From NCBI GenBank assembly GCA_020205615.1, contig JAINUW010000600.1:1-64000 (forward strand): DNA of 64,000 nt, written 5' to 3'. The position numbers and the translations under genes are program-made. This DNA comes from Panax quinquefolius. Its lineage: Eukaryota; Streptophyta; Magnoliopsida; Apiales; Araliaceae. Below the pieces are notes generated by a model that saw nothing but the letters and a program-made list of their open reading frames with translations, was not told the DNA's origin and did no database searches. Position 1 is the first letter of the stretch. Each line of letters opens with the position of its first letter. Shown one piece after another: positions 6,645 to 44,786 of the stretch.

Positions 6645-6657
6645 TTGGTATCAAAGC
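6645..6657 (+). other. Primer-binding site of E2
   Basis: TTGGTATCAAAGC, three bases after the LTR end. It matches the complement of the plant initiator tRNA-Met 3' end with one change. It is followed by TATAGGTTATA, a donor-like sequence also found after the E3 primer site. Confidence 0.8.
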
Positions 6658-6878
6658 TATAGGTTATAAACATTAGGAATGTGAAACCTAGGTTTTAACC
6701 TTAGTAGAAAACTCTTATATAGTATGTTAAGAGATGGATTGTGGAAATTCATCGAGTATGTGTTATACTTAATAAAATATTATTTCATTTTATCAATGAA
6801 TATATTTTATTGTGGTACTAATGTTAGTTTTATTTATGGTGTTTGTTGGATGTATGAATAACACAGGCGGGCCACTCA
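6658..6878 (+). promoter_or_regulatory. E2 leader with candidate splice signals
   Basis: Noncoding leader. AG|GTTATA follows the primer site directly. ACACAG near 6861-6866 lies about 13 bases before the ATG at 6879 and could serve as a 3' splice site. Splicing is inferred from sequence only. Confidence 0.4.
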
Positions 6879-7449
6879 ATGGAGCAAGAGCCCATTGGAG
6901 CGAAGGTCACTGGAAGAAGCCCCTCATAGTCCTCCGGTAGGGGATTTGTTGAGGAGAATCAATCAATTAGAAGGCAGAGTGGGAGAACTAAAGGTTGAAA
7001 ACCACACACTCCAGTTCACAGAAGGTCAATATAAGGATGCGGCTTATCAAGCCCAGATGGAGGTAGTCAAACAAAAGGGAAAGTTGGATGAGTCAGAGTT
7101 GCAAGTTGGGATGCTGAGCGTGCAGCTTCAGGCCTTGATTGCTGACCTTGAGGTGGAAAGGCTGGAGAGGACTAGGATGGATGAAGCATTGTATAATGTA
7201 GCTAAGAGGGTCGACCAGTTGGAAGGTGAGCTACTGGCGAAAGATACCATGATAGAGACACTACGGCTAGCGCTTGATGTAGCCTTCCAAAGCCAGAAGG
7301 GACTGGGTGTTAGGCCTCGCGTGGAGATAGGCGAGTCGAGTCGATCCGTTCGATGTAGAGTTATGGTGGGGTTGTTTCCTAGAGAGTTCGTTCGGTGTGA
7401 CCGCCAGGCCACCAAAGTGATGATTATGCTATGGATCGGTTGTAGATAG
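6879..7449 (+). pseudogene. Extra coiled-coil ORF upstream of gag in E2
   Basis: A frame open from 6862 to a stop at 7447-7449, about 184 residues after a TTG at 6895. The only nearby ATG (6879) lies in another frame, so one early frameshift is likely. From about residue 15 to 130 it is dense in Leu, Glu, Lys and Gln with heptad spacing (for example RRINQLEGRVGELK and KRVDQLEGELLAK), which predicts a long coiled coil. It has no gag, zinc-knuckle or pol motif. The C-terminal ~40 residues are basic and probably out of frame. It sits between the primer site and gag, the same place as the 242-residue coiled-coil ORF of E3. I do not recognise the family and function is unknown. It could act in assembly, RNA handling or host-factor binding (inference). 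Confidence 0.6.
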
Positions 7450-15565: not shown

Positions 15566-15580
15566 AAGTTTGGGGGTATT
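15566..15580 (+). other. Polypurine tract of E1
   Basis: AAGTTTGGGGGTATT directly before the 3' LTR, the standard Athila plus-strand priming site. Confidence 0.8.
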
Positions 15581-17250: not shown

Positions 17251-17251
17251 T

Positions 17252-18608: not shown

Positions 18609-19929
18609 ATGATGCAAGAAAAAAAGTTGCTTAAGAAGGTTTGTATAGGTTATTTGGCTCACGTTGGGGATACCCACAGAGTCGAGGGTGAACTGGGTCA
18701 GATAGCTATTGTAAGGGAATTCGTTGATGTCTTCCAAGATGAGATTCCAGGATTGCCACCAGATAGAGAGGTAGAGTTTGTTATCAATTTTGCACCAGAG
18801 ACATCACCGGTATCCAAAGCTCCGTATCGTATGGCTCCGGTAGAAATAAAGGAACTGATGGATCAACTACAAGAGTTATTAGATAAGGGATACATTTGAT
18901 CGAGCGTATCACCGTGGGGAGCACCAGTCTTATTCGTAAATAAGAAGGATGGGTCCTTAAGGCTTTGTATCGACTACCGAGAGTTGAACAAGGTCACCAT
19001 TAAGAACAAGTAACCGTTGCCCAGGATCGATGATTTGTTTGATCAGTTGAAGGTGGCGAAATACTTTTCAAAAATCGACTTGCGGACTGGTTATCACCAA
19101 CTGAAGGTGAGGCAGGAGGATGTTCTAAAGATGGCATTCAGAACTCGGTATGGACACTTTGAGTTTTTGGTAATGTCTTTTGGATTGACGAATACGCCAG
19201 TAGCATTCATGGACTTGATGAACAGAGTGTTTAAACAGTATTTGGATAAGTTTGTTATCGTGTTCATCGATGACATTCTGGTATATTCAGAGACGGAGGA
19301 AGAGCACGCTGAACATCTAAGGATAGTGTTGGAGACGTTAAGGAGGGAGAAGTTATATGCAAAGTTCTCCAAGTGTGAGTTTTGGTTGCAGAGAGTGCAG
19401 TTTTTGGGTCACGTTATCGACAAGGATAGTGTTTCGGTGGATCCAGCAAAAGTAGAAGCGGTTATAGAAATTAGGAGTTTCTTAGGATTAGCGGGATACT
19501 ATCAGAGATTCATCCAAGATTTTTCAAAGATAGCATCATCGTTGACCAACCTTACTAGAAAGATGGTGAAGTTCGTTTGGATGGAGAAATGTGAAGAGAG
19601 TTTCATGGAATTGAAGAAGAGGCTCAGTCAAGCACCTGTGTTGGCTTTACCAGAAAACACGGGAGGATTTGTAGTGTATAGTGATGCGTCACAAAAGGGT
19701 CTTGGATGTGTACTGATACAGCATGGCAAGGTCATTGTGTACACTTCACGTCAGTTGAAGGACTATGAGAAGGGTTATCCGACTCATGACCTGGAATTAG
19801 CAGCAATAGTTTTTGACTTTAAGATTTGGAGACACTATTTGTATGGCAAGAAGTGTGAGATATATACGGATCACAAGAGTCTGAATTATATCTTTACGCA
19901 CAAGGAGCTAAATATGAGGCAGCGCCGAT
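18609..19929 (+). pseudogene. Reverse transcriptase and RNase H of E2 (interrupted by E3)
   Basis: The connector (FVDVFQDEIPGLPPDREVEF) is followed by RT blocks: [10 protein letters not shown], a stop at 18897, [24 protein letters not shown] with a stop, then from 19017 [24 protein letters not shown] and the catalytic FIDDILVYS near 19268-19294. The thumb reads [15 protein letters not shown]. About 12 residues are missing near 19465, between KVEAV and [12 protein letters not shown]. RNase H follows: [15 protein letters not shown], then ETDH-type motif [14 protein letters not shown] and NMRQRR, where E3 is inserted at 19930. Two stops and the small deletion make it inactive. Confidence 0.88.
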
Positions 19930-22900
19930 TATGACACCCCCAAATCCATGTACTTTATTCCCACAAGATTTGGTGTTCACTTATCAAAACTATTACATCT
20001 AACTACCCATCAATAAAGGATAAAGACATAATTTAAATAACTTAAACACTAACCTCTCCCAATAAAGGGTTACATCATCATCTCAAATTAAATCCTAGGT
20101 AATCTAACCTTAAAATTATTGCATAAATTTGCAGAATACATCACATATTAAAACAAGTCTTTAACATAATTTTTTAAAATAAAATTCTCAAAAGTCTTCA
20201 TCATTTGGAAATCTTGCCCTTGCCTTTGCTAGTCGACGGCTAATAAACTTTCTCCACTTTAGCTGCAATGTTAATTGCAAGAGTGAGCAAATAAATGCTC
20301 ACTAATATAGAACATAGCAACGATAATAACATGAGAGTGAACAACGAAAGCTAAACAATAAGGAACTTGTTCTACAAATCAAACTAGAAAACAAGTTCAA
20401 ACTGAAATTATCTGAGGGTCTTAAGACCACGAACTATGTCCCCGGTACTTAGGTATTATTACCCAACCTTAACAGTCATTTAGACTATACGGACCCTTCT
20501 TAACATACTTATGGGGATCAGCCCTTTGTACCATGTATTGTGCACAAACATCTAAACATTACACGTACAAAATCCCATGTGTTAGGGTTGTTCGTCTCAG
20601 TTTGAATTTAGAATTTCCGCACTAAAGAAAGTTTAGTTTGGAACTAGCTTATCAGTGTTTCATGATTTTAGAACACTATTCGATTTACATCAGTAAAGGT
20701 TTGATACAAGAGTTTATAACTGAACAAGACTATTTAGATCAAATATTAATAACAACAGTATATATTTAGGTAAACATGGAATTCATGCAAAGTGCTACAT
20801 TCAAATGAGTTAGAACAATCTCATTTGAAGCAATGAATTAAAGCATTACAAATTCTGAATAATGAGAAATAGAAATGTGAAACTCATTCGAGGTAACGAA
20901 ACAGGTCACAAGAGCTTATACATACATATTCAAGATAGATTAGGCTTGCTCAATTTTAAGAACTTGCACAATAATATTATAGAAATGGAGACTTGCATTC
21001 AATACGAAAAGAATGAAGTTAGAAAGCTTTACTCAATGTAAAGAGTTAAGATTTAAGAACTTGCTCAATAATAACAAGGTAGAGGTTAGAAAACTTGCTC
21101 AATCATAAGGAGATAAGGTTTAGAAACTTGCCTTGATTGTAAGCTACACAAATGAAAAATAATCTCCAATTACCCTACACACATCATTGAAATCGCAAGC
21201 ACAATTAGTTGTATGAATATTAGCTTTTAGGGTTTAAACCATCATTTAGGTCATAGCCCTAACCTAGCACCTAACCACGTAGGTTAATATACTTAACGCT
21301 TCTAAAATTACACATTGATCAACATAACTTAATCGTTCAACTCTATCTTTCGAAAACATCTCATTTGGTTTCATTTTATAACTTATTTAAATAATTATTT
21401 CAAATCTTTACACTTTGCATTTCAACACATTGAAATCTGATATTATACTTTATATCATGTATTAACATCATTAACATACACGCTAAACTAACATAAGTCC
21501 GATATGCACGACTGCAAACAAAGCAGACCTCCTTGTCTTGGTTAAATTGTGGCATTGCACTACTTACCACACTGAAGGCTACTAGGACTAAGAATTCTTG
21601 GCAAGACAACACCAGATTACCTTGTTTTTTGCCTTGTACAAGCCTTGTTACAGTAAGAATTGATTGATGACATAAAGACGGCGAATGAGCGATGAGTCGT
21701 TTTAGCCCAACAAACACAAATTTCACCCGTTAAATGGTGATAACAATATGTAAAATAAATATACAACTAACAAAAACATAATTACTAACATATTCAACCA
21801 CTTAATCCAATTTAACAACAATTAGAACTATTTTAATTTCTCAATTTTCATGTTTTTCATATTAAACTCCATTTTTGACAATCTATCCCAAAATCATCGC
21901 TGCGAATTCGTTATTTGGCCAAATCATTCCATTCAAATTACATTATGTTCATATCTCAATGAACTACCATATGCAAGCATCAATTTATAATTTTATACAC
22001 AGATTGACCACTAAAATTGATACTTTCTAAGGCCATAACATATGAATATAAACACTGCTAATTCCTTTTCTTCCTACAACCAATTTCTCACGAACTTGAT
22101 AACTGATACAACACGCATACAAGATAATTAACAGATTCTACAACATAATACACACCGTTTACATAACGCTTGAACAACAAATCCAGAAAAACCAGTTTAT
22201 AGATAATAGAAAATCACAAGTCTAAGAATTAAAATTAGATATACCTTAATCTTCTTGATTATAGACTAGTAAGATGGTGAGTCTCTTCCTCAACCCTCAA
22301 CAATTTGCAGAGATTTCACTCAAATTCTCTTTAACCCTCTGTGTCTTCTTCTCTCTCAACTCACCACTAACCTTAGGAAAATAAGATGCGTAGGAAAATA
22401 TACTGACTCCCACTAACGTCAGTTGAATAAGCCAAATGGTCTTCGTCGGTTAAAAATAAGCCAAAGGCCACAAGGCCCTGTTTGGCTAACCAAAACTCTC
22501 CCAAACAATTTATTTTAATAATATTAATATTATATAGTTTTCATGTCACACCTTAATTTAGTTAATTTAAATAACCTTAGATTAGTTGATTTAAATTAAC
22601 TTATAATATTAATAATAAAAAATCTTATTATCATTAATAAATAGTTATATATCAAATTTAATTAATAAATTAGACACATCACTATATTTAATTTATTTAT
22701 TTCCTTTAAATTAAATAATTCATTTAATTTAACTAATTTCTTAAATATTAAGCAATTGATTTAATTTAACTATCTCCTTAAATTAAAACCAACAAATAAA
22801 ATTATCATTACTCGATTCAATTAACATTAATTAATTTAGCTACTAAATTAATTCATGACAATTCATAAAATATTTATTTTCCTCAATAAATAAATTATTT

Positions 22901-22960
22901 TAAATATTTATTTAATTCCATAAATATTTAAATTAAATTACAAATTTCTCGATCGTTACA
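19930..22960 (-). repeat. 3' LTR of E3
   Basis: In its own sense it starts TGTAACGATCGAG (at 22960) and ends GGGGGTGTCATA (at 19930; the final CA reads TA). It pairs with 28390-31408. AT-rich palindromic sequence fills the first ~450 bp. The conserved hairpin lies at 20282-20303. Confidence 0.92.
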
Positions 22961-23045
22961 TCCTTCCTCCTTAAAAGGATTCATCCCCGAGAATCACAAC
23001 TCGAAAAAATTTATTCGTTACATTCTTCCTCCTTATCAAGATTCT
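22961..23045 (-). repeat. Polypurine tract of E3, present twice
   Basis: Directly before the LTR lies AAGGAGGAAGGA followed by TGTAACGA. About 61 bp upstream (23015-23035) the near-identical AAGGAGGAAGAATGTAACGA occurs, so the tract and the first LTR bases are duplicated in tandem. Confidence 0.75.
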
Positions 23046-23068
23046 GTCCCCAGAATCGCTATACAAGA

Positions 23069-23650
23069 TCAAGCAAACAACTGAGGATAATTCTTCATCA
23101 TAATGCTTTCAAGTTCCCACATAGCTTCTTTAGCATTATCGTTCCTCCAGATTACCTTAACAGAAGGTATCGCCTTATTCCTCAGTACTTGCTCTTTTTT
23201 GTCAACAATTTGAGCAGAGACTTCTTCATAGGACAAATCTTTCTCAAACTGTAAGGGCTCATATTCTATAACATGCTTATAGTCAGGCTTATATGGTCTC
23301 AATACCGAAACATGAAAAAGATTATGAATATGCTTTAACTCCGGAGGTAAAGCTACCTCGTACGCCACTTCGCCAACTCGACGAAGATCTTCAAAAGGTC
23401 CTATAAATCTAAGGCTCAATTTTCCTTTGTTGCCAAATCGAATTTTCCCCTTCTAGGGAGACACTTTCAAGAAAACATAACCACCGACATCAAATTCTCT
23501 ATTTTGTCGATGCTGATCAGCATATTTCTTCTGTCTATCTTGTGCTGCTATCAATCTTGCTCGAATTACTTTGATGATCTCGACAGTCTGTTGTACCAAT
23601 TCTAGACCCAATAGTTGACGTTCACCAACCTCGTCCTAACATAATGGAGT
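23069..23650 (-). pseudogene. Integrase C-terminus and chromodomain of E3
   Basis: Continues the integrase after a stop at 23651. Readable pieces are the AAQDRQKKYAD motif and the GPF-type motif RFIGPFEDLRRVGEVAYEVALP. From 23419 down the frame is open: ELKHIHNLFHVSVLRPYKPD, then the chromodomain (YEEVSAQIVDKKEQ, SVKVIWRN, EAMWELES). The chromodomain is known in this lineage to direct integration to heterochromatin. An in-frame stop near 23456 and the one at 23651 separate it from the catalytic core. Confidence 0.85.
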
Positions 23651-24733
23651 TCAGCATTTCCTGCCGTATAATGCATCGTAAGGCGGCATGCCAATACTCG
23701 CGTGATAACTATTATTATAAGAAAATTCTACCAATGGCAGATGGTCATCCCAATTTCCCTTGAAATCCAAGATACATGCTCTGAGCATATCTTCTAGTGT
23801 TTGAATGGTTCTCTCACTTTGTCCATCGGTTTGAGGATGGTACGATGTGCTCATTCTCAGTTGTGTCCCCAAACATTCTTGTAATCGTTTCCAGAAATTA
23901 GATGTGAAACGTGGATCTCTGTCTGATACAATGGACACAGGTACACCGTGTCTTGACACAATTTCCTTCATGTACAGGTTTGCTAATCGATCTAGTGTAA
24001 ACCGAATCTTAATTGGCAAAAAGTGTTCCGACTTCGTCAGTCGATCGACAATCACCCAAATGGCATCGTAACCTTGCTGAGTCGTTGGAAGACCTACCAC
24101 CAAATCCATTGTGATATACTCCCATTTCCATTCTGGTATCTCCAACGGTTGTAACAATCCGCTTGGCCTTTGATGTTCAGCTTTAACTTTCTGACATGTT
24201 AAGCATTTCGCCACACACTCAGCCACATCCCTCTTTATATTCGGCCACCAAAAATGATGCTTAAGATCCTGGTACATCTTTGTACTCCCAGGGTGAATTG
24301 AATATCGAGAGTTGTGAGCTTCATTCAAAATTTCTTCTTTAACTTTTGGTACTAGCGAAACCCAAATTCTCCCTTTGAATCTAAATAACCCTTCCGAATC
24401 GATTTTGAATTTGTTTTCCTCACCCTCAGATATCTTCTGTTTTATCTTTTCGCAGTCTTCATCCTGAAGTTGCACATTTCTCACTTTATCCACCAACGTT
24501 GAACTGTTTTCCATCTGGAATAACTTTTCATCAGATTCTGTTGGATATTTAATTTCTAACTCCATCTTAGCCATTTTCGACACTAGTTTCTCTTGAGCAG
24601 TTAACATTATCAACTTCTCCCGTCCCTTCCTACTTAAGGCATCAGCAACAACATTCGCCTTTTCGGGATGATAGAAAATCTCACAATCATAATCTTTGAT
24701 TAGCTCCAACCATCTTCTTTGTCTCATATTCAA
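23651..24733 (-). pseudogene. RNase H end and integrase core of E3
   Basis: A 360-codon open frame. It starts with the end of RNase H ([26 protein letters not shown]). Next is the integrase HHCC zinc site: [18 protein letters not shown] with [12 protein letters not shown]. The catalytic core follows with MDLVVGLP (first Asp), [14 protein letters not shown] (second Asp) and [14 protein letters not shown] (Glu). The D-D-E triad appears complete. It ends at YGRKC and a TGA that replaces the usual Arg codon, a likely CpG decay. Codons before 24733 continue the RNase H of the next feature after a frameshift. Confidence 0.9.
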
Positions 24734-24794
24734 ATCTTTTTGTGTAAAGATATACTTCAGACTTTTATAGTCGGTATATATCTCACACCTCTCT

Positions 24795-25988
24795 CTACAA
24801 AGATAATGTCTCCAAATTTTTCAGGGCAAACACCACTGCTGCCAAATCTAAGTCATGGGTCGGATACCCCTCCTCGTAATCTTTCAACTGTCGTGATGCA
24901 TATGCAATAACTCTGCCATTTTGCATAAGCACACAGCCTACTCCTTTATGCGATGCGTCACTATATACCATAAAATTTCCTGTATCATCAGGTAATGACA
25001 ACACAGGTGCAGAGCTCAGCCTCTTCTTCAATTCTCGAAAACTTTCCTCACACTTCTCGAAAACTTTCCTCGCACTTCTCTGTACATCCTCCGGCCTCAC
25101 CTTCAACTGATGATAACCACTTCTCAAGTCTATCTTAGAGAAATATCTCGCTCCCTTAAACTGATCGAACATGTCATCGATCCTAGGTAATGGATACTTA
25201 TTTTTAATTGTGACCTTATTCAACTCTCTGTAATCAATGCAGAGCTGCATCGATCCATCTTTCTTCTTAACGAATAACATCAATGCTCCCCATGGCAAAA
25301 GACTTGGCTGAATATATTTCTTGTCAAGCAATTCTTGTAATTGCACCATCAACTCTTTCATTTCTACCGGGGCCATTCTGTACGGTGCTTTAGATATCGA
25401 AGTCGTTCCTAGTAGTAAGTCAATCACAAACTCGATTTGTCGATCCAGCAGAAGACCCAAAAAATTGTTTGGAAATACGTCTTTAAAATCTCTTATGATC
25501 GGTATCTCTTCCAACCTCGCACTCTTCTTCTGCGTATCAACGGTGTAGGCTAAGTATCCTACACATCCTTGTCTCAACAACTTCTTGGCTTGCATCACCG
25601 TCAGACAACTTGCTTGTCGAGGTGACTTGCTGCCATAAAACACAACCTTTGACGGAGTCATAAAGTTAACACACTTCCTATGGCAATCAATTACTGCTCC
25701 GTAATTGAATAACCAATCCATTCCCAATATAACATCAAATCCACCAAGTCTAATTAATATCAAATCTACCATCATCTCATGACCTTTCATATCCACTCTA
25801 TAATTCTTATATATAAATCTAACAGGAATCACTTCCTTAGTTGCAATCTCTATACTTAAGGGAAATTCTAATTCTTCCTGAGGCAAATCTAAGTTCTGAG
25901 CAAATTCATCGGATATAAATGAACAAGTAGCACCCGAATCAAATAGTAGATAAGCATTAATACCATTAATCAAAATGATACCTGACAC
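24795..25988 (-). pseudogene. Protease and RT of E3 with the catalytic core deleted
   Basis: A 397-codon frame. Protease: [24 protein letters not shown] segment with DSGA, then [66 protein letters not shown] and [18 protein letters not shown]. It then jumps to [15 protein letters not shown] of the RNase H region. About 160 residues, including the expected Y/F-x-DD catalytic motif, are gone. A 22 bp tandem duplication (25032-25075) sits at the junction. RNase H begins with [13 protein letters not shown]; the frame then breaks near 24800. It cannot polymerise DNA. Confidence 0.88.
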
Positions 25989-26000
25989 CGCATCCTTAGA

Positions 26001-27128
26001 TCATACTGACATCTTGCTTGCGGTCGTGTTAAAAGTCCTCGCGATGAGTGGCTTGACTTGATTTAAATTTGGTCTAGTGATAGTTAATGCACCACCACCA
26101 TTGTTGTTTCCTTTTCCGCCATTTGCATTTCTCGCTGGCTTCTTAGGGCAATCACGAGCCATGTGATCTTTTGAACCGCAGGTAAAACATGTTCCTTTCT
26201 TCGGACTATAACAGTTCGGTGCAATGTGTCCCTCCTGACCACAGTTGAAATACACCCACTTTCCCTTCAAACATACCCCAGTATGGTTCTTCCCGCACGT
26301 TGCATAAGCCTCAAACTTTTTCTTCTGCTGATTCCCTTGTTGTCCTCCCGTAGTTGAATTCTCACTCCATTTCCTCTTCTGATTATTACTTCCAACGTTA
26401 CTTCCACCCGCCATATTCTCATTGTCACTCTTCCTCTTCTCTTGTTCTTGGTTGTACTTGGTCAAAGCATCGCTTCCACCTTCTACGATAATTGCCTTCT
26501 CCAACACAGCCGCAAACGTGTTCAGCTGTAACATTGAAACCTTGCTGTAAAGCCAGGGCTTCAATCCTTGTTCAAATCTTCTTGCTTTACGTTCATCAGT
26601 ATTAACTTGATATGTGGCAAACCTTGCCAACTCGTTAAACTTCATAGCATATTCTAGCACCGTCATCATTCCTTGCTTCAACTCCAGAAATTGCACTTCC
26701 AGCTGATTTCGAGAACTCGCTGGAAAATACATTTCGAAAAACATTTCTTTGAATATATCCCATGCTATCACTCCTTGTCCTCCACGAACCTTATTTGCTT
26801 GCCACCAGTAGCTAACCCGGACTTGACATGAACGCTATTCTTAACGCAGCGATCTTCGATCTTCGTTAACTCTAGCAACGTCGAACACCTTCTCCATTTC
26901 CTTGATCCAGGTTTGGGCTTCCACTGGATTCATAGACCCTTGAATTTCTGGTGGTCCAACCGCTTTAAACTCTTTAAAGGTCGTGACTTGAGCTTGCGGT
27001 TGATTCGCAAGTGCACCCGTCAACAGAGCTACCAACTGCTGAACCGGATTAGCGTTGGTCTCGTTGTTATTATTAGTAGACCCCTCAGGAGGTGCTTGCT
27101 GACGTGTTTGTCTTTTTCTAGGAGGCAT
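26001..27128 (-). pseudogene. Gag of E3
   Basis: ATG at 27128 opens MPPRKRQTRQQAPPEG and the conserved TFKEFKAVGPPEI and NPVEAQTWIKEMEKVF motifs (95 codons). A frame break at about 26840-26771 leads into a second 256-codon frame with the rest of the capsid (EMYFPASSRNQLEVQFLELK, VLEYAMKFNELARF) and three zinc knuckles, the first degraded: CGKNHTGVC, CGQEGHIAPNC and CFTCGSKDHMARDC. It ends with RTFNTTA, the start of the protease connector. ATG 27128 is preceded by CAG-AAA, a possible 3' splice site. Confidence 0.87.
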
Positions 27129-27429
27129 TTTCTGTTAAGATATACGCTTATTAGCTCATTACTCAACTTCTTGGGTATTTAAAGTTTAACTTAAACATTC
27201 CAAGATTAAAGCTTAAACACATAACATTTCAAACAAACTTTGATATTTTATTTATTCAAAACGTTTTAACACATGATAAAGATAGCATAATCGCTATAAC
27301 ATCCACTTTCTTGAACTAAACACATTTCAGGATTACATACTCATACTATCCCTTTATTTATCTCCAAATAAGGGATTCACAATTTTATTTATTCACATGA
27401 TTTAACCGCATATTGTTATCTATCCTATT
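27129..27429 (-). promoter_or_regulatory. Spacer before E3 gag with candidate 3' splice site
   Basis: About 300 bp noncoding between the coiled-coil ORF stop and gag. It ends TATATCTTAACAG|AAA-ATG (AG at 27132-27133). The pyrimidine content upstream is modest. Splicing is inferred. Confidence 0.4.
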
Positions 27430-28158
27430 TTATCTAGGCATATTAAGGCGTCGTAAGGCTTCTCGACGTTCCTCCTCCATGATACGATACGTCGTTCTGC
27501 GATCCATCACGAACCACGACGAATTCTCAAACTGAGGTGGATAATAGTAGACTCGATCCTGGGCCCTATCAATCACCGAATTAAAAGCATAATCCATCTC
27601 TTTCATTTTGGCTTTCTTAACTTGAACCTTAGTCTCAGCACGATCTGCACGTTGAGTCGCCTTCATCCATGCATCCTCTGCTCTTGCATGCTTAGCTGAT
27701 TCCTCCTTGAAATCATCTTTCAATTTCTCCATGTCAGTCTTCATCTTCTCGTGCACTGCCAACAGGTCTTCATGCTGACCCTTTGTATGAACCAGATCCC
27801 ACTCCGTGTTTCCATGTTTCGAATCAAGTTCCTGAATCTCTGCATCCTTCTGCTCCATCGAAGCATGATGCATCTCAACCATTTCCTTCAGCTCCTCGAC
27901 CTCATCCTGTAATTCTACATTACGGTCATACAAAACATCATACATCTCGGCCGATATGGAGTTTGGTGGAAACTCCTCAGTATCCTCCTCATCATCATCC
28001 TCTTCTATTTCCTCAGAACTATTCTCCTCGGGATCGGTTACAGGCTCATCCTCTTGGATCAACTGCTCCCGCACCACATGAATATCTTGGGGTTCATCAT
28101 CTATAGGTATCTGAGGTATCTCCTCTCTAGCTAGACTGGATCCTCCTTCGTTAGACAT
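27430..28158 (-). CDS. Extra coiled-coil protein ORF upstream of gag in E3
   Basis: An intact 242-codon ORF from ATG 28158 to the stop at 27430. Residues ~1-70 are acidic, with a run of Asp/Glu (EEIEEDDDEEDTEEF). Residues ~75-200 have heptad-like Leu/Glu/Lys spacing (RNVELQDEVEELKEMVEMHH, EKMKTDMEKLKDDFKEES), predicting a long coiled coil. The C-terminus is basic with aromatics (RVYYYPPQF, RRTTYRIMEEERREALRRL). There are no gag, pol, envelope or membrane features. It lies between primer site and gag, as in E2, and its ATG directly follows TTTTGTTGTCAG|G, a good 3' splice site. It is one of the few unbroken frames here, which suggests recent selection. Family and function are unknown to me. 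Confidence 0.75.
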   Translation of the reverse strand: MSNEGGSSLAREEIPQIPIDDEPQDIHVVREQLIQEDEPVTDPEENSSEEIEEDDDEEDTEEFPPNSISAEMYDVLYDRNVELQDEVEELKEMVEMHHASMEQKDAEIQELDSKHGNTEWDLVHTKGQHEDLLAVHEKMKTDMEKLKDDFKEESAKHARAEDAWMKATQRADRAETKVQVKKAKMKEMDYAFNSVIDRAQDRVYYYPPQFENSSWFVMDRRTTYRIMEEERREALRRLNMPR

Positions 28159-28374
28159 CCTGACAACAAAATATTTTAAGTTTTACTTAACATTTTTTGA
28201 TACTCGTGAGCACATAAGTTATTAACACATAGCACATAATGTCTTTTGTTATTTAGCTTCAATGGATACCTTAATGCATTCCTTAAAACTCGGTAAGAGT
28301 TAAACACCTCTATATTTTCTGTTTCCTTAAAGGTTACTTCCTAAGGTTTACCCACCTAAGGTTCATAACCTAAA
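28159..28374 (-). promoter_or_regulatory. E3 leader with donor-like and acceptor-like sites
   Basis: Reading in the E3 sense, the primer site is followed by CTTTAG|GTTATG and then CTTAG|GTGGGT (near 28356), both donor-like. The leader ends ATTTTGTTGTCAG|G before the ATG. It is about 215 bp and has no ORF. Confidence 0.45.
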
Positions 28375-28387
28375 GCTTTGATACCAA
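28375..28387 (-). other. Primer-binding site of E3
   Basis: In the E3 sense TTGGTATCAAAGC, two bases after the LTR end; the same tRNA-Met-type site as in E2. Confidence 0.82.
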
Positions 28388-28389
28388 CC

Positions 28390-31300
28390 TGTGACACCCC
28401 CAAATCCAGGTACTTCATTCCCATAGGATTTTATGTTCACTTATCAAAACTATTACATCTAACTACCCATCAATAAAGGATAAAGACATAACTTAAATAA
28501 CTTAAACAATAACATCTCCCATTAAAGGGTTACATCATCATCTCAAATTAAATCCCAGGTAATCTAACCTTAAAATTATTACATAAATTTGCAGAATACA
28601 ACACATATTAAAACAAGTCTTTAACATAATTTATTAAAATAAAATTCTCAAAAGTCTTCATCATTTGGACATCTTGCCCTTGCCTTTGCTAGTCGACGGC
28701 TCATCAACTTTCTCCACTTTAGCTCCAAGTGTTAAGACCGTAAGTGAGCAAACAAATGCTCACTAATATAGAAACGTAGCAATGATAATAACATGAGAGT
28801 GAACAACGAAAAGTTGAACAATAAGGAACTTGTTCTACAAATCAAACTAGAAAACAAGTTTGAACTTTAATTATCTGAGGGTCTTAAGACCACGAACTAT
28901 GTCCCCGGTACTTAGGTATTATTACCCAACCTTAACAGTCATTTAGACTATACGGACCCTTCTTAACGTACTTAGGGGGATCAGCCCTTTGTACCATGTA
29001 TTGTGCACAAACATCTAAACGTTACACGTACAAAATCCCATGTGTTAGGGTTGTTCGTCTCAGTTTGAATTTAGAATTTCCGCACTAAATAAAGTTTAGT
29101 TTGGAACTAGCTTATCAGTGTTTCTAGAATTTTAGAACACTATTCGATTTACATCAGTAAAGGTTTGATACAAGAGTTTATAACTGAACAAGACTATTTA
29201 GATCAAAGATTAATAACAACAGTATATATTTAGGTAAACATGGAATTCATGCAAAGTGCTACATTCAAATGAGTTAGAACAATCTCATTTGAAGCAATGA
29301 ATTAAAGCATTACAAATTCTGAATAATTAGAAACAGAAATGTGAAACTCATTCGAGGTAATGAAATAGGTCACATAAGCTTATACATACATATTCAAGAT
29401 AGATTAGGCTTGCTCAATTTTAAGAACTTACACAATAATATTATAGAAATGGAGACTTGCATTCAATACGAAAAGAATGAAGTTAGAAAGCTTTGCTCAA
29501 TGTAAAGAGTTAAGATTTAAGAACCTCCTCAATAATAACAAGGGAGAGGTTAGAAAACTTGCTCAAACGTAAGGAGATAAGGTTTAGAAACTTGCCTTAA
29601 TTGTAAGCTACACAAATGAAAAATAATCTCCAATTACCCTACATACATAATTGAAATCGCAACCACAATTAGTTGTATGAATATTAGCTTTTAGGGTTTA
29701 AACCAGCATTTAGGTCATAACCCTAACCTAGTACCTAACCACGTAGGTTAATATACTTAACGCTTCTGAAATTACACATTGATCAACATAACTTAATCGT
29801 TCAACTCTATCTTTCGAAAACATCTCATTTGGTTTCATTTTATAACTTATTTAAATAATTATTTCAAATCTTTACGCTTTACATTTTGACACATTGACTT
29901 CTGATATTATAGTTTATATCATGTTTTAACATCATTAACATACACGTTAAACTAACATAAGTCGGATATGCCTGACCTGTAAACAAGCAGACCTCATTGT
30001 CTCGGATTCGAGGTATGTGGTAGCAATTGCGCCCACACTTAGGTTTAGGGCCAAGTGACACGCCATTTTTGCCTCCTTAACCAAGCAATTATTCTTGCTT
30101 TGGTGTTCGAATTGAGCATGAGGCAGCGATGAGCAAAGAGTAGCCATTTTTAGCCCAACAAACACAAATTTCACCCATCAAACGGTGATAACATCATGTA
30201 AAATAAATAAACAACTAACAAAAACATGACTGCTAACATATTCAACCACTTAATGCAATTTAACAACAATTAGAAATATTTTAATTTCTCAATTTTCATG
30301 TTTTTCATATTAAACTCCATTTTTGACAGTCTATCCCAAAATCATCACTGCGAATTCGATATTTGGCCAAATAATTCCATTCAAATTACACTATGTTCAT
30401 ATCTCAATGGACTACCATATGCAAGCATCAATTTACAGTTTTATACATAGATTAACCACTAAAATTGATACTTTCTAAGGTCATAACATATGAATATAAA
30501 CACTGCTAATTCCTTTTCTTCCTACAACCAATTTCTCACGAACTTGATAACTGATACAACACACATACAAGATAATTAACAGATTCTACAACATAATACA
30601 CACCGTTTACATAACGCTTGAACAACAAATCCAGAAAAACCAGTTTATAAAGAATAGAAAATCACAAGTCTAAGAATTAAAATTAGATATACCTTAATCT
30701 TCTTGATTATAGACTAGCAAGATGGTGAGTCTCTTCCTCAACCCTCAACAATTTGCAGAGATTTCACTCAAATTCTCTCTAACCCTCTGTGTCTTCTTCT
30801 CTCTTAACTCACCACTAACCTTAGGAAAATAAGATGTGTAGGAAAATATACTGATTCCCACTAACGTCAGTTGAATAAGCCAAAAGTTTTGCGTCGGTTA
30901 AAAATAAGCCAAAGGCCACAAGGCCCTGTTTGGCTAACCAAAACTCTTCCAACCAATTTATTTTAATAATATTTATATTATATAGTTTTCATGTCACACC
31001 TTAATTTAGTTAATTTAAATAACCTTAGATTAGTTGATTTAAATTAACTTATAATATTAATAAAAAAAAATCTTATTATAATTAATAAATAGTTATATAT
31101 CTAATTTAATTAATAAATTAGACACATCACTATATTTAATTTATTTATTTCCTTTAAATTAAACAATTCATTTAATTTAACTAATTTCTTAAATATTAAG
31201 CAATTGATTTAATTTAACTATCTCCTTAAATTAAATCCAACAAATAAAATTATCATTACTCGATTCAATTAACATTAATTAATTTAGCTACTAAATTAAT

Positions 31301-31408
31301 TCATGACAATTCATCAAATATTTATTTTTCTCAATAAATAAATTATTTTATATATTTATTTAATTCTATAAATATTTAAATTAAATTAAAAATTTCTCGA
31401 TCGTTACA
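28390..31408 (-). repeat. 5' LTR of E3
   Basis: In its own sense it starts TGTAACGATCGAG (31408) and ends GGGGGTGTCACA (28390), with canonical TG...CA. The conserved hairpin is at 28743-28764. It is longer in AT-rich palindromic sequence near 30960-31400, which is its U3. Confidence 0.92.
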
Positions 31409-32500
31409 CCGATGGCTAGAATTGATCAAAGATTATGATTGTGAGATTCTGTACCATCCAGGCAAAGCAAATGTAGTAGCAGATGCCCTGAGCAGAAAAG
31501 GCAGAGAGAAGTTACTGAAGATGACCATTCAAGAGGAATTGGTGAAAGATTTCGAATGACTTGACTTAGAGGTTAAGTATCCGATGGAGACCAATGAGAA
31601 ATTATTCTGATGGCGTGAGCAGACTTTATTAGATAAGGTTAAAGAGGCTCAAGAGAAGGACGAAGATTACGACAACATCAAGAAGCGGTTAGCTAAAGGG
31701 GATGAATTGAAATACAAAACTGATGGCATCGGACTGTTGAGATTCGAAGGATGAATTTGGGTACCATTAGTACCAGAACTAATAGAAGAGATTTTGCAAG
31801 AAGCGCACAGTACGAGGTACTCGATACACCCAGGAAGCACAAAGATGTATCAAGATTTATGTCAACACTTTTGGTGCCTAAACATGAATAGAGAGGTTGC
31901 AGAATGCGTCAGAAGATGTCTAACTTATCAGAGAGTCAAGGCAAATCATTAACGACCGAGTGGATTACTATAGCCTTTAGAGATTCCAGAGTGGAAATGG
32001 GAGCACATCACGATGGATTTTATGGTGGGACTTCCAGCAACGCAAAAAGGACACGACGCCATATAGGTGATTGTAGATCGTCCTACGAAGTCAGCTCACT
32101 TTTTGCCAATCAAGATCAGGTATAGTTTGGACCAGCTAGCCAAATTATATATCAAAGAAATTATCTCGAGACATGGCGTACCAGTATCTATTATATCAGA
32201 TAGAGATCCGCGATTCACGTCAAACTTACGGAAGAGTCTTCAAGAAAGAATGGGGACCTTGACTACGGATGAGCATAGCGTATCATTCATGAACCCGATG
32301 GGCAAAGCGAGAGAACAATTCAAATGCTTGAAGACATGCTCAGAGCTTGTGTGATGGACTTTAAGGGTAGCTGGGAGGATCATCTTCCATTAGTAGAGTT
32401 CGCATACAACAATAGCTATCACTCCAGCATCGGAATGCCGCCATACGAAGCACTGTATGGGAGGAAATATAGAACGCCCTTATGCTGGAATGAAGTGGGT
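31409..32500 (+). pseudogene. RNase H end and integrase of E2, after E3
   Basis: The sense of E2 resumes at the second CCGAT copy with [22 protein letters not shown], then [15 protein letters not shown] and the CVRRCLTYQRVKA zinc site (one Cys changed to Tyr). Integrase core motifs ITMDFMVGLP and [11 protein letters not shown] are present. The DNA near 32240-32330 is garbled where the catalytic Glu should be. Several stops (for example near 31557, 31608, 31752 and 31951) make it dead. Confidence 0.85.
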
Positions 32501-33131: not shown

Positions 33132-34253
33132 TGTAATAACCGTGAATTTTAAGTCACTATATATGTATGTACATTATTGATATTTAAAACTTTGTGTTAT
33201 ATAGTGATTTAATATGTGACAACATATGTGAAGTGGTTCATGGATCAATAAACATATATACTATAGTTTTGGATATATAAATTTATAGATTTCATTAAAA
33301 ATGAAAGCTTCGTAAACTAATTATACATTAGGTAAGACAATTAAATAACCTAAGGGTTATGGTAATAAGGAAAGGTTAGTATTTAATATGTATACTAACT
33401 TAAGTGGATAATCTTGTTATTTCAAGTGACTAATGATTTTAAACCTATTTCTAGTAAACCTAATTAGGTTATGAGCTAAAGTCACATGTATAAGTAATTA
33501 AATTTCATAAGATTGGGAATGGAAACCCTAAATAAACAATTTGGGTAACATATATTAAAATTGTTAGACTATGTTTATTACATAGCCCAAAACAATTAAA
33601 GGAGAAACCCAAAAGAAATAAAATGCAAACCAATACTTAGCCCACTTGATTAAGGGTATTTTAGACTTTTGATTAATCTAATTTGTGCATTAAAATAAAA
33701 GCAAAATGGAGGATATAATGGAACATAGTGACCGGCCCTATTAGGCCTTTTAAGGCAACAAAGTTAAGCTAATCAAGTTCCATAAGTAGAAGTCTTACAC
33801 ACAAGGACAAGTGTGTCATGCTCCCATTAGTGGAAAGCTTAATTAGTACCCTTAATCACATGATTAGGCTTAATTGAAAGAGATAAGGTGAAGTCTTTTA
33901 TCCATGGAACAACAAAAGTATGGGGGATAATAGTTTAATCACAACATTCATTTGCTAGATCAATTCATTTCTCTTATTCTTCTTCTTCTTCTTTTCTCCC
34001 AAGCTAGCAGGATACAAAGTGAGAGAAAGAGAGGGGGGTTCAGTTTTGAGAGAGTGAGAGAGGTGTGCTAATTTGTTTGATGCACCCTAAGTTTATATAC
34101 TACTTTGGTAAATCAAGGAAGGTTGCTACTAGATCAAGGTATAACCTAATCTTCATCTTCTTCTTCTATTTTGTGTTATAGCTTGATTTGTTGGGGTTAT
34201 AAACTAATACTCAAGATACCCTAGTTCTACATATCATCATGTATGGAACTAAG
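33132..34253 (+). repeat. 3' LTR of E2, first part
   Basis: Starts TGTAATAACCGTG. The first ~646 bp have no counterpart in the 5' LTR; from 33778 it matches 3450 onward. It is cut at 34253 by E4, whose target duplication CTAAG occupies 34249-34253. It resumes at 51357. Confidence 0.9.
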
Positions 34254-35523
34254 TGTTGGTTATATATTTTATGATTTTAATGATGACAATATTATTGGGT
34301 TTATGAATTTGATTTAAATTGTTTGGGCTGATTTAAATTTGTTATATTTTTTTTTGTTGGCCTAAGATTGGAATTATGGCCCATTAGTATATTCTTTTTA
34401 TATTTAAGTTTGCATGTTGCATGTTGCTGAAAAGATCTTTAATATAATTTAGTAATGATATGGAATTCAATTTGAAAAGGAAACTAAATAAGGTAATTGT
34501 TATTAAGTGATTAGCTAGTAACAAACTTTATAAAATATCTCCTTGTTCCTTTATTTAAGGTGTTTTGGTTTAACTTGAAAACATATCCTTGATTTACCAA
34601 ATCTGTTGGACTCTTTAATTGCTAATATCATGGGGTATACCAAATTTGATATAGGTTTCCTATTCTATCTTATGTTCATAACCGTTGGTTAATATTAGTA
34701 GCTAATATTATGGAATTTAAATCATCTGATTTCTTGCAAATAATTATTTTATAGCCGTTGGGTCTCTCTTTATATATAGTCTTATCTCACGGCTAAGCAG
34801 GAAGGATATAAGAAGCTAATTCATGTTGCTATACAGAGAAGAATCCTATTTAGAGCTTTCATTGTTTATTTCCAACTATTCATTGTACTGTCTATAATTC
34901 TTTGTGGCTGGAAAATAAGAAGTCTATTGTAATTTCTTCTATTATATTCAAATTTCTAAGCTTGTTTGACTTGATCGATCCAGTAGTGGATAGGGTCTGT
35001 TCAAAGAGAGCTTTCAAGGTTGTAGAGGTGCAAAGATCTCAGTGGTGAGAAAGGTTGTAGAGGTGCAAAAGGGGTAGAGGTGTCCATCAGTGGAAAGCTT
35101 CTTTGAAATAGGGAGTTCTTTTAATTGTATTTAATTGAATATTAAGTTTAAAAAGAGTCTCCAATCCTAGTTGGGATTGGACGTTGATTAGGCCACTAGA
35201 TTAGAGGATAGGGGCTGAACCACGTAAAAATCTTGGAGTGATTTTTACTTTTGTTTATCTCTTTAACTGTCATTCATGTTCTACATTTTATTTGTTCTTC
35301 ACGCTACTTGAAGTTATACTATTCAGACACTAAAGTAGACAGGTCTAGCTATCTGATAATATTAAACGAAGAACATAAACTAAAGCAGACACTAAAGCAA
35401 ATAGGTGTAGCTGTCTGAATTAAACCTGTAGCATAAAGTTACGAAAAGATTTCACCATTTATCACTTTTAGCTTAAACACCTATTCACCCCCTCCTCTAG
35501 GTGTGCACATACATAGAATTTCA
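34254..35523 (+). repeat. 5' LTR of E4 (SIRE-like)
   Basis: TGTTGGTTATATATT to GAATTTCA, 1270 bp. A TATA box (TATATATA, 34771-34778) follows GTCTCTCTT. Two CAGACAG/CTGTCTG-type hairpins lie near the 3' end, weaker here than in the 3' LTR because of point mutations. Confidence 0.93.
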
Positions 35524-35525
35524 TT

Positions 35526-35541
35526 TGGTATCAAAGCAAGG
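35526..35541 (+). other. Primer-binding site of E4
   Basis: TGGTATCAAAGCAAGG, two bases after the LTR; complement of initiator tRNA-Met with one change. Confidence 0.85.
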
Positions 35542-35583
35542 CTCTACTGATATTGATCGTTGCAGGTCGTAAGGGAAGATCCT

Positions 35584-35904
35584 ATGGCACACCTAAACTT
35601 TCAAGAAGGTCAGTCCACAAGTAGGCCACCGTTGTTGTTCGGAAGTGAAAACTTCAACTTTTGGAAGTTCAGAATGAAGATTTTTCTTAAAAGAGACCCA
35701 TGGGAATGGTGGGTTGTTGAAAATGGACCTATCATTCCTAGAGATGATGATGGCAAACCAAAGGCTCTCATGGAGATGGATGCAAACGAAAGCTATATGT
35801 TTTCCTACAACTCAAGAGCCATGAACACCTTGCTAAGCGGAATGGTCCAAGCTGAAATTGATAAAGTATCTTCGTGCAACACATCAAACGAAATGTGGGA
35901 TACA
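35584..35904 (+). pseudogene. Gag of E4, part 1
   Basis: ATG 35584 (MAHLNFQEGQS). RPPLLFGSENFNFWKFRMKI and WEWWVVENGPIIP are the usual N-terminal gag motifs of SIRE/Copia elements. It is open up to the E4b insertion at 35905 (target site ATACA in a Trp-Asp-Thr stretch) and continues at 47774. Confidence 0.85.
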
Positions 35905-38094
35905 TGTTAGGTTTGTAATATTCAAGAACGCAATCAAATTGCAAAAATTAGCAGAAACGTGTAAAAAATCAGAGTTTAAAATTTTACAAACCATATACCC
36001 GGATCACCCTTTATGCACAATTATTAATTAAACGAAAAGATAAAGAATAAAATCATACCCTTGAAGATCGAGCTTCCTCAGGTACAAGTTCACTCCAATC
36101 CTTTTCGCGTTCAACTTGAATCCACCGAGTTTGGTTCCTTCCTTTGATTAACGTTAGCCACCCAAGTGTTTGGCCTCTAGAGATGATCCATCAAGGAAGA
36201 AAAAGATTCAAGAAGATGGGTGGTTGGCTAAACCCTAGTTTTTCTATCTCTATAGAAAAAGAGCGTACTCTCCAACCATTGGAATTATATCGTATCTTTT
36301 GATATCTGATATAAGACTCCTCTTATATAGATATCAAGTAACCCTATTAAAATAAGGTATTATTTAATTAAACTCTTTTAATTAAATGGGCTCCCTAATC
36401 TTATTAGGGATAATTAATTAAACTCCTTTAACTAATTTTCCCTCCTAATCCTATTAGGAATTAATGAGAGTACTTGTAAGACCCCAACTTATTATTAATG
36501 AAATTTAATTTTCTCTATTTATTATTTTGAAATAGTAAGGGTTGATTTGATTAATGTGGATAGTTAGGGTAAAATACATAAAATATTTCAAAATAAGCAA
36601 GTGGTTATAAAATATTCATTGTTGTCGAGGAATATTCGTTTGGGTCGTGGAATATTAAATCTTTGTCGGGGAATATTAAATGCGGTAGTACTTGACCATG
36701 TGTGGGCCCCATAACTGAAAGCGATTGGATGAAGAAAAGCGACAAATATAAGTTGTTTAAAAATAACAAGCGTAGTTATTACAGATTAATCTTGTTAAAA
36801 TCCTCGTTGGTTAAAAACACGGTAGCTTTGCGGTATTGCACCAATTATTGATTCTTACGTAAGAAGGCACTACTAAATAATGGTTACTGATAATTATCGA
36901 TCAAGATTTTATTTTATTGATTTAATAATTCTTTGCGTTGATATTTTATATTCTTTGTTGTTTCAATAATTGTCATTATACAATTATTTTTCATTATCGA
37001 AGCAATAATTCATATTATCCGAATAATATTATTAGATAACATTATTGGCAATGTCTAGAAAGTTACATCTAAGGAGAGGTTTGGTCACCTAATTGCGCGC
37101 CAGTAAGGAGAAATTCTTATTGGAAAGCCCCCTCTTTCTTGGAAACTGCCTGGTTGTCAATATTGTGATTCTGTAATATTATTTGTGAATAATTAATTAT
37201 TGATTCATATGATGAGGAAAATATTGATTTTATGTGGATATAGATGGAGAAAATTTTTAATGTGACAATTGTTGAAAATTAAAATTTTATCTTTTCTGAT
37301 AAGATAATTCATTTAAAGGTATTATTATATTTTAATAATATAATAATGGTGATATTTTTACAACGAATGTGGGATATATGAGTATACAAGGAGGAAGAGT
37401 ATTTTTGTTGCAATAAATGTTTAAAACATGTTAAACATGTCGGTGGACCCCATTTATTGACTGAAATTTGATTATAGCCTGTAAAATCGCCCGTTTGTGG
37501 ATTTTGGTCAATTTCTATTTGGAATTTGGAAAAACTTTCTTCTGCAAAGTTGTAGAGAATTGAATTTCCTATAAAAACACGCGAGATTCGAATATTCTGA
37601 TGAAAGGGCTATTTATTATGAATTATTGAAGTTCCAAAGCTCCGAAATAATTGATTTTTGGAAGTTTAAATTATTTTAAATTAGAAAAACGTTTTTTCTT
37701 ACTTTTTTCTAGAATGTGGCATGTGTTTGATGGCTGAAATCAGATTCTAGGCATGCGTAGGAAATTTATATAATTATATTATTAATTTATTAAATTTTCG
37801 CTTTGGTGTTCTAAGCAATTTCTATAAATAGGGTGCTTAGGTTAGAATTGAAAATCACACCGTAAACTGAAGTTTTCTTTCTCTATATTATCGGCGTATT
37901 CTTGTGAGTATTTTGAGTATACTTTGAGTATTGTTAGGCAGTGTAAGTTCCTTGAGACTATATACGGTATTCACTAGAAGTCTTAATCTTTCGAGGTAAG
38001 GGATGTTATTTTCTTCTCAAATGATATTATTTCTTCAATATCATTATGCTGAAATATTGGTTGAAATTTTTTATCAAATTTAGAACTTTTTCAT

Positions 38095-38280
38095 ATCGGG
38101 GTTACTATTCATGAGTTACTATTCACGAGTTACTATTCATGAGTTACTATTCACGATTACTATTCACGAGTACTATTAATGAAGCGTGAAGATGTTTTTT
38201 GGAAATTTCTATCTTTTGGTGTAGGAGTTACTATTCACGATATCAAGACTATTCACGTATAATGCACTATTCATAGAAAA
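38095..38280. repeat. Short tandem repeat TTACTATTCAYGAG in the solo LTR
   Basis: About eight degenerate copies of (T)ACTATTCACGAG or ACTATTCATGAG, placed downstream of the TATA box and so probably in the transcribed leader. Confidence 0.75.
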
Positions 38281-38512
38281 ATAAAATTTCTTCTTTTTGT
38301 CCAAAATATCTATTACGGATACTAGCTTTGATTGTATCCATGTTTTGATCATTCTTGAATTTTACACCACTATGATTATTTTTGAGGTATTTTTGGACAT
38401 GGATAAAACAAAGTACGAATCCTTAATCCTTAATCCTTGTCATTTTGTTTCTTTGGATTCGTTTCTTTAAAAATATTTTTCATCGTCCTCGGTCTTAAAT
38501 GATGATATTATT

Positions 38513-38643
38513 GAATATCTTTGGCTGTAGAAGCAAAAGATGAATGATTTTGAAGAATATCTTTGGTAGTAGTGCAAAGATGAAGCAGTGTTTAGATGAA
38601 CATGATTAATGATGAATATCTTTGGCTGTAGTGCAAAGATGAA
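38513..38643. repeat. Three hairpin repeats in the solo LTR
   Basis: GAATATCTTTGGCTGTAG...GCAAAGATGAA occurs near 38513, 38554 and 38612. Each pairs ATCTTTG with CAAAGAT around a short loop. Confidence 0.7.
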
Positions 38644-40489
38644 TATTTGATTCGAGATATATATTGATTGATGTTCTGGGGATAAAAGATAGAGCGATGA
38701 ACTTTTAAATTCATACATAGAAGATAGTAGTTTGCATTCTCTACTTAACTCTTCTAATGAATTATTATTTCATGCATGAATATTGATTTAAAATTTGTTG
38801 TCTATTGTATTCTATTAGATTTTTCCCTGTTGAAGACTAACGGTAATTTGTTGTATATTATCTTAGTCATAATATTCTTTACTGGGCTAGTTGAGCTCAC
38901 CCTTTTCCTTTTTGTTCCATTTTTCTTCTCAGGAGGCGAGAATATAGCGAGTACGAGTCGGGGTATGGAATGAAGGTTTTAGAAAGAATTGTTTAATAGT
39001 CCTCACCATTTTTGTAAAATAATGTATCAATAAATGTGATGAGGATTTATTTGAGTATAGATATTGTCTAGAAGATAATATTTGTATTCAAACTCACAGT
39101 TTTACTGTTGTAATAATAAAGTTGTAGTTGTTTCTGTACTATGTATTGACAACTCAGAATAGGTGATGTATACCTATTTTGGGGGCGTCACAGTACTTAT
39201 ATTAAATTAATTTCTAAACTCTTTTAGAAATTAAAATAATAATAATAATAATTGTAATAATATTAATAAGACTCCTCTTATTAATTTATATTTAATATTT
39301 CTAAAATATTAAATAATAAATACTAAGCTATTTAATTTATTCTATCACCATAGATTAAATTAAATATACATAATATATTATTACAATTATGCCATTAACT
39401 TCTTAAATAATTATTCTTCCTTTTTATGGTGTGACCCTTTAGGTTCTCCATATTAAACCGGTTGTGAATAAATCAATTAGAACAATTCTAATCTTATTTA
39501 AATAAATAATTTAAACAATTAATTTATTTAAATAAATAATATTTATTCTACAATAGGGATAAGCCTCTCCTAGCGATCAACGACTTTCCGGATAATATAG
39601 ATTTCAACATTAATCATAAAAGAACCTTTGAGTAAATAGTTACCGTACAATTCAATCCTTCCACCATACTGATGTCCCAATTAAATATAAGACATGAAAT
39701 TCATCAAGTCTTATTTTATTTAATTATATGTATTTCGATCCTTAAATGCACAACTCAAATAATGCAAATTAGAAACTCCTTTCTAATTTCATTTCGCTTC
39801 GCCAAGGAGGACTCTTTGGGTTGTCATTTATCGAATCACATAGGACATTTCTTTTCTTTTAATAGAAGTGGTAGATTCTTTATTGATCATACATTATCTC
39901 CATATATAACTTATTATACCCAAGCATACCCTTTGATATACCCTAAGGGTCTTAAGGAATAAGTCAAAGTATAACTCATCATACACAAGATACTATGATG
40001 ATCTCAAGTCCAAGGATCACTTGTACTACTATCACTACTGAGGAATTCCTATTGACGAGGCAAGTAAAACTCCATTAGGTATTCCTTAGCGAGCCACGTT
40101 CGATGAACTTATTCTCCAATAAGCACCTACATACTTGCTTTAGTGTCTCCACACAAATGATCATGAGATCAATCATCCTCATCAATGAAGCAAGCAACGT
40201 ATGTACCAATCTATCCGGATTCACTAATCCCAATTTAGTAATCCAATGATTGAGAACTATTTTAGTTTTAAGCTTTCTAAGAATTTAGATCTCATTAGAA
40301 TGATCATCATCATTATTCTAAAAGCATTGCTTAAAACTATGGGTTTATCACATATTATAAAACAAAGACATCATGTAGATAATTAAAAGCCTTTAATAAA
40401 TTAATACTTTTATTAATAAATGAATAAGATTGTTACAAAGTATATGCTTTATCATCAAACATGATTGGCTTGTGTGCATACTACTTTCA

Positions 40490-40505
40490 ATCTCCCACTT
40501 GCACT
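40490..40505 (-). other. Polypurine tract of E4b
   Basis: In the minus sense GTGCAAGTGGGAGAT, directly before the LTR start. This tract form is common in Angela/Tork-type Copia elements. Confidence 0.75.
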
Positions 40506-42730: not shown

Positions 42731-42779
42731 TAAAGAAAAATTTATTTCAATCATGAACAAAAAAGCGTATTGTAAATAG

Positions 42780-43540: not shown

Positions 43541-43783
43541 GCATCTAATATGCTACTGTGATGATAGTAATTTAGACATTGTAAAATTACTGTAAATGAA
43601 TTTGTAATTAACAACATTTTAACATACATTCTTTTATTAATTACCAAAATAAATTAGGTCTTGTTTTAAATTGGTATCTCCCACTATTTTCTTCAAACTA
43701 TATTACCCTCACTTATATAGTTGGCAAAATCTAATTAAAGATTTGCTAGTGAGAATAAGGATCCCATTTCAAATGTATATAGT

Positions 43784-44783: not shown

Positions 44784-44786
<3 letters not shown>

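What the first reader, a model, noticed from the sequence alone, without database searches (positions are those of the whole stretch)
27126..28390. E3 carries an intact extra coiled-coil ORF with splice acceptors at both its start and at gag
Between primer site and gag lies an unbroken 242-codon ORF (acidic head, long coiled coil, basic tail). Its ATG follows TTTTGTTGTCAG|G, and the gag ATG follows TTAACAG|AAA. A donor-like AG|GTTATG sits directly after the primer site and AG|GTGGGT shortly after. One donor with two alternative acceptors would choose which protein is made from the genomic RNA. Extra ORFs before gag are known in Ogre/Tat elements; I know of no description for Tekay chromoviruses.
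Basis: partly seen in the sequence, partly recalled or inferred. Interest (0 to 1): 0.75.

Follow-up and report, generated by a model that had tools for sequence, protein, structure and literature searches.

The report
Coiled-coil gene ahead of gag
An old, broken plant retrotransposon still carries an intact extra gene for a coiled-coil protein in front of its structural gene; relatives of that protein exist elsewhere, so the gene is real, but extra genes at this place in such elements were already known and the proposed splicing switch is unproven.

Summary
Element E3 (19930-31408, minus strand) has an intact 242-codon sense ORF (27430-28158) between primer site and gag. It is a real gene: 4 homologues were found in a set of 5.8 billion proteins, 2 of them full length and about 50% identical over aligned columns, from first Met to last helix. 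AlphaFold2 gives a disordered acidic head, long helices and a C-terminal helix. E1, the element that E3 sits in, has another coiled-coil ORF in the same place, with 2 homologues; the two proteins are not shown to be related.

The splicing idea is weakly supported. The motifs are there, but E1 has no acceptor AG at its coil ATG, and a YAG ends 0-4 bases before 10 of 53 ATGs in the E3 leader and 7 of 45 in E1. No RNA could be examined.

The novelty claim fails: 5' extra ORFs of Tekay elements are in print (PMC11728184; PMC4093653). What looks new is this protein family, under the 250-codon cut-off of the reference survey (PMC6317226). The own-genome search did not complete, so copy number, dN/dS and splice-site conservation stay open.

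The parts
27430..28158 (-). 5' additional ORF of E3, 242 codons: acidic disordered head (1-65), long coiled coil (70-204), C-terminal helix (220-237)
   Evidence: homologues
19930..31408 (-). E3, the whole element, with 5-base target duplication CCGAT at 19925-19929 and 31409-31413
   Evidence: ends read from the printed flanks
28390..31408 (-). 5' LTR of E3
   Evidence: end read
19930..22960 (-). 3' LTR of E3
28375..28386 (-). primer binding site TGGTATCAAAGC (initiator tRNA-Met type, recalled)
   Evidence: read
28354..28369 (-). two donor-like sites, intron-side first base at 28369 (AG|GTTATG) and 28355 (AG|GTGGGT)
   Evidence: use as splice sites not shown
28160..28175 (-). acceptor-like TTTTGTTGTCAG before the aORF ATG, last intron base would be 28160
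   Evidence: use not shown; no AG at this place in E1
27132..27147 (-). acceptor-like site before gag, last intron base would be 27132
   Evidence: weak, use not shown
26841..27128 (-). start of gag, up to the first in-frame stop
23069..26834 (-). rest of gag-pol in broken pieces: break sites near 26841, 26001, 24795/24820, 23651/23635 and 23453; most of the RT core missing near 25059-25083
6850..7449 (+). coiled-coil ORF of E1 in the same place (open from 6895; start near 6850 out of frame with the rest; 14 residues fewer than its homologues in one stretch)
6646..6657 (+). primer binding site of E1, TGGTATCAAAGC
   Evidence: read

Best explanation
Shown: the ORF is a real gene, a 5' additional ORF in sense between primer site and gag of a Tekay-like chromovirus family; it encodes a protein with a disordered acidic head, a long predicted coiled coil and a conserved C-terminal helix module. 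Inferred: in competent relatives it is made from the element's own RNA as a separate accessory protein that oligomerises through the coil and, through its conserved blocks, binds Gag, the particle or the genomic RNA. A particle or RNP accessory role seems likeliest, working like the coiled-coil virion-associated protein of plant pararetroviruses (recalled analogy; no sequence kinship found). Six short ATG frames lie between the LTR and the aORF, and the aORF lies before gag, so making both proteins from one RNA needs splicing, reinitiation or a like step; which is unknown. In E3 itself the gene is a fossil.
For: Homologues P0001-P0004; same start and end in P0001 and P0002 and conserved blocks that lie mostly outside the coil proper; helix prediction; ORF far longer than chance; second coiled-coil ORF with homologues in the same slot of E1; uATG counts.
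Confidence: 0.45

Rival explanations
1. Regulator of the element's RNA: a nuclear accessory factor for export or silencing avoidance of the genomic RNA, as CERV does for Cer1 of C. elegans.
For: CERV is an extra protein of an LTR element needed for export of unspliced RNA (PMC10309623, abstract and passages); the sunflower Tekay 5' aORF protein is predicted nuclear (PMC11728184); acidic head and coil fit a regulator too.
Against: No similarity to either was tested (their sequences are not held here); CERV lies elsewhere in its element and is spliced from gag exons; no nuclear signal was sought here.
Confidence: 0.2
2. One reading: one donor beside the primer site and two acceptors choose between aORF protein and Gag.
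For: Best donor-like and most T-rich acceptor-like sites of the E3 leader are at the right places; non-coding stretches are AT-rich (GC 0.32 and 0.27 against 0.45-0.47 in the coding parts); 12 ATGs between the aORF stop and gag argue against plain scanning to gag.
Against: E1 lacks the AG at its coil ATG and the GT of the better donor; gag acceptor weak; chance rate of YAG before ATG 10 of 53 and 7 of 45; AT-rich non-coding DNA is expected without introns; plant LTR elements are said to lack introns in general, with Ogre and EVADE as exceptions (PMC12786077, passages).
Confidence: 0.2
3. Passenger: a captured host coiled-coil gene piece without function in transposition.
For: Gene capture by plant LTR elements is known (PMC7264820, part 1 of 3 of the text); neutral survival of the ORF in this copy is not improbable; the homologues are unnamed and could be of host origin.
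Against: Patchy but strong conservation over the full length at about 50% identity, and an ORF of the same type with homologues at the same place in E1.
Confidence: 0.15

Closest known systems
5' aORF of sunflower Tekay group 2 (Tekay 13-2), PMC11728184
   Same: Sense ORF before gag-pol in a Tekay chromovirus of a dicot, conserved in the family (500 of 523 elements), no Pfam domain, partly disordered
   Different: 402 aa, 15.9% proline, mostly disordered with three separate helices, predicted nuclear (section 2.5); E3's is 242 aa and mostly one long coil.
5' aORFs of grass Tekay elements (maize Tekay, sorghum Sb7, rice Retrosat-2/FRetro3 ORF0), PMC11728184 and PMC4093653
   Same: Same place and sense; the maize and sorghum proteins have a long C-terminal helix
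E1 coiled-coil ORF, same window
   Same: Same slot between primer site and gag, MS-type acidic start, coil, homologues elsewhere
   Different: About 187 aa, one uninterrupted helix, no demonstrable homology (BLASTP E 0.011; hhalign probability 1.7)
Virion-associated protein of Caulimoviridae (recalled; only the title of the tetramer paper was seen, in a reference list)
   Same: Small coiled-coil oligomer encoded before the capsid and polymerase genes (recalled)
   Different: No caulimovirus family among the Pfam rows up to E 10 and no fold match with E up to 0.001
Ogre ORF before gag; Diaspora leader
   Same: Ogre has a long ORF between LTR and gag; Diaspora has a long leader with predicted acceptors flanking the gag start (PMC1142308, passages)
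   Different: Both are non-chromovirus elements; the Diaspora leader has no long ORF; no intron before gag was known in 2005 (same passages)

Membership tests
Tekay/Del chromoviruses | Ty3/gypsy order PR-RT-RH-INT | tested here: met
   Pfam matches in order along the pieces of E3; RT only in part
Tekay/Del chromoviruses | chromodomain behind the integrase | tested here: inconclusive
   E3 piece 23069-23452 matches SH3_Tf2-1 but not Chromo at E up to 0.01; the related element E1 matches Chromo (1.2e-5, just above cut-off)
Tekay/Del chromoviruses | initiator tRNA-Met primer site and 5-base target duplication | tested here: met
   read; the tRNA match is recalled
Tekay/Del chromoviruses | place in an RT/RH/INT tree | not tested
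5' aORFs of Tekay elements | sense ORF between primer site and gag | tested here: met
5' aORFs of Tekay elements | conserved across copies of the family | tested here: inconclusive
   4 homologues elsewhere, but no copies of this genome could be searched (21 busy answers)
5' aORFs of Tekay elements | sequence similarity to the published 5' aORF proteins | not testable with these tools
   those sequences are not held; the paper itself finds none between sunflower and grass proteins
Caulimovirus virion-associated proteins | sequence match to the family | tested here: not met
   no such Pfam family among the rows up to E 10 for E3, P0001, P0002; HMMER filters drop many weak matches
Caulimovirus virion-associated proteins | tetrameric coil that binds capsid and nucleic acid | not testable with these tools
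   needs protein

The most novel reading that the evidence does not exclude
Two lineages of Tekay-like elements in one genome have each settled a different coiled-coil accessory gene into the same slot before gag, a retrotransposon counterpart of the pararetroviral virion-associated protein, expressed from the genomic RNA by alternative splicing from a donor beside the primer site.
Probability: 0.12. Interest if true: 0.7.

Novelty: new member of a known kind. Interest (0 to 1): 0.4.

Why it matters
Extra ORFs before gag have no known function. A conserved protein family with a clear architecture, plus a second coiled-coil family at the same place, gives a concrete hypothesis (oligomeric partner of Gag or RNA) and a profile for finding more. 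It also suggests that surveys with a 250-codon cut-off (PMC6317226, passage) miss this class: here 242 and about 187 codons.

Tried and rejected
Chance ORF: rejected. Intactness in this copy as proof of selection: rejected. Homology of the E1 and E3 coil proteins: BLASTP E 0.011 for the one pair, hhalign probability 1.7; not accepted. Fold searches: only generic coils, nothing with E up to 0.001. PDB sequence matches are weak and of tropomyosin, myosin and Smc type. Viral contig scans with the aORF profile and with the integrase piece: no relatives. Pfam rows such as bZIP_1, Rod_CreS, ATG14 and LUC7 all lie below the curated cut-offs and are taken as generic coil matches. Copies in the own genome, dN/dS, splice-site conservation and copies lacking the putative intron: planned, not done, since genome search answered none of 21 requests.

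Literature: ten searches, of which I saw capped listings; I noticed no title or abstract start that names a coiled-coil 5' ORF of a Tekay element or splicing at one. The words 'coiled' and 'splic' do not occur in PMC11728184. The library lacks most subscription journals; the 2011 Genetica survey of extra ORFs (Steinbauerova et al.) was not looked up by id and not seen, only cited in papers read.

Full report
What is there. E3 is a minus-strand Ty3/gypsy element, 19930-31408, inserted in the pol gene of a plus-strand element, E1, with the target duplication CCGAT (read). Its LTRs are 92.9% identical, K2P 0.077 over 3056 sites with 13 gap events. The primer site follows the 5' LTR directly. Between it and the gag ATG (27128) lies the 242-codon ORF 27430-28158.

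Is it more than chance. A 242-codon ORF does not arise by chance in such DNA (0 of 2000 simulated sequences, longest 120). Its survival in this copy is not itself evidence of function: a simulation with LTR-derived rates keeps it open in 26% (substitutions only) or 9% (with indels) of 20000 runs. gag-pol has five break sites (near 26841, 26001, 24795/24820, 23651/23635, 23453) and lacks most of the RT core: where E1 has 460 bases (19124-19583), E3 has 25 (25059-25083).

It is a real gene. A search of 5.8 billion proteins gave one homologue among 185 candidates (P0001, E 3e-43, 43% local identity over 99% of the query); a two-sequence profile gave four among 5049 candidates (P0001-P0004). P0001 (247 aa) and P0002 (257 aa) match from MSN to the last helix; P0003 and P0004 are shorter (146 and 164 aa). 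Identity to E3 over aligned columns is 50, 50, 42 and 57%. Conservation is patchy: the blocks around DIHVVREQL, AEMYD..DRNVELQDEV, EWDL.H.KGQ and AQDRV..YP.QFE are 63-79% identical, the blocks RADRAE/KKAK and DRRT..RIM.EER 48%, the two coil stretches between them 23-35%, the linkers 0-15% (block limits were chosen after seeing the alignment).

Architecture. AlphaFold2 on the five sequences: residues 1-60 almost all below pLDDT 50, helices 70-124, 129-204 and 220-237, mean pLDDT 72, pTM 0.52. A heptad statistic exceeds all 200 shuffles for E3 (narrowly, 66 against a maximum of 65), for E1 and for each of the six homologues. No Pfam family reaches its curated cut-off, and no fold match has E up to 0.001.

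A second case in the same window. E1 has its primer site at 6646-6657, its gag start at 7939, and between them a coiled-coil ORF (open 6895-7449; the likely start near 6850 is out of frame). Two homologues of 189 and 187 aa were found among 350 candidates, 64 and 58% identical; P0005 is predicted as one helix, residues 38-179. The E1 and E3 proteins are not shown to be related. E1 also gives the chromodomain match that E3's broken piece does not. Two elements whose pol pieces are 69-74% identical in DNA thus hold two different coiled-coil ORFs, each with homologues, in the same slot.

Splicing. In the E3 leader AG|GTGGGT scores 6 of 8 against the recalled donor consensus, the best there; 164 of 3106 GT on the window's plus strand reach 6. 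The YAG at the aORF is the most T-rich of the leader (8 of 15; 9% of 2910 YAG of the window reach 8); the one at gag has 5 of 15. Against this, a YAG ends 0-4 bases before 10 of 53 ATGs in E3 and 7 of 45 in E1. E1 has no AG at its coil ATG, and AGGAAT where E3 has AGGTGG; AG|GTTAT after the primer site is shared, and E1 too has an AG shortly before gag. Six ATGs lie between the LTR and the aORF and twelve between its stop and gag, so gag needs more than plain scanning; splicing is one way, reinitiation another. No RNA was available.

Known or new. Sunflower Tekay group 2 carries a 402-aa 5' aORF in 500 of 523 elements, and maize, sorghum and rice Tekay elements have others, without amino-acid similarity to it; the maize and sorghum proteins also have a long helix (PMC11728184: abstract, section 2.5 and passages). 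Retrosat2/FRetro3 ORF0 lies between 5' LTR and gag-pol (PMC4093653, passage). The 2019 survey counted eORFs of at least 250 codons and found 314 groups of them in Ty3/gypsy elements (PMC6317226, passages). So the kind is known; I saw no description of this protein family in the ten literature searches.

Mechanism. I judge it most likely an oligomeric accessory protein acting with Gag or the genomic RNA; this is inference from architecture and place, by analogy with the pararetroviral virion-associated protein (recalled). A role in RNA export like that of CERV (PMC10309623, abstract and passages) is the next candidate.

Limits. The own-genome search did not answer in 21 tries, so copy number, selection and splice-site conservation are untested. 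The clade name Tekay rests on recall and was not tested by a tree.

Noticed in passing
6850-7449: E1, the element in which E3 sits, has its own coiled-coil ORF between primer site and gag, with two homologues (P0005, P0006) and a conserved IGESSRSV tail.
   Followed up: yes
25059-25083: E3 has 25 bases where E1 has 460 (19124-19583): most of the RT core is missing, by a length that is a multiple of three (435), so the reading frame runs on.
   Followed up: partly
3454-6641 and 33772-34254 plus 51353-54021: LTRs of E1; the 3' LTR is split by an insertion of about 17 kb (34255-51352), itself bounded by repeats 34254-35523 and 50075-51351 (94% identical).
   Followed up: partly
8121-17252: Another element inserted in the gag of E1: repeats 8121-9795 and 15581-17252 (90% identical) and a Retrotrans_gag ORF at 9937-10767.
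   Followed up: no
35905-36478 / 45913-46487 and 39192-40491 / 46478-47775: Two further direct repeat pairs of about 95% identity, probably LTRs or pieces of nested elements.
   Followed up: no
48195-48674: A 159-codon ORF with a helical, heptad-like stretch, by eye like the gag-pol zone of a copia-type element (recalled).
   Followed up: no
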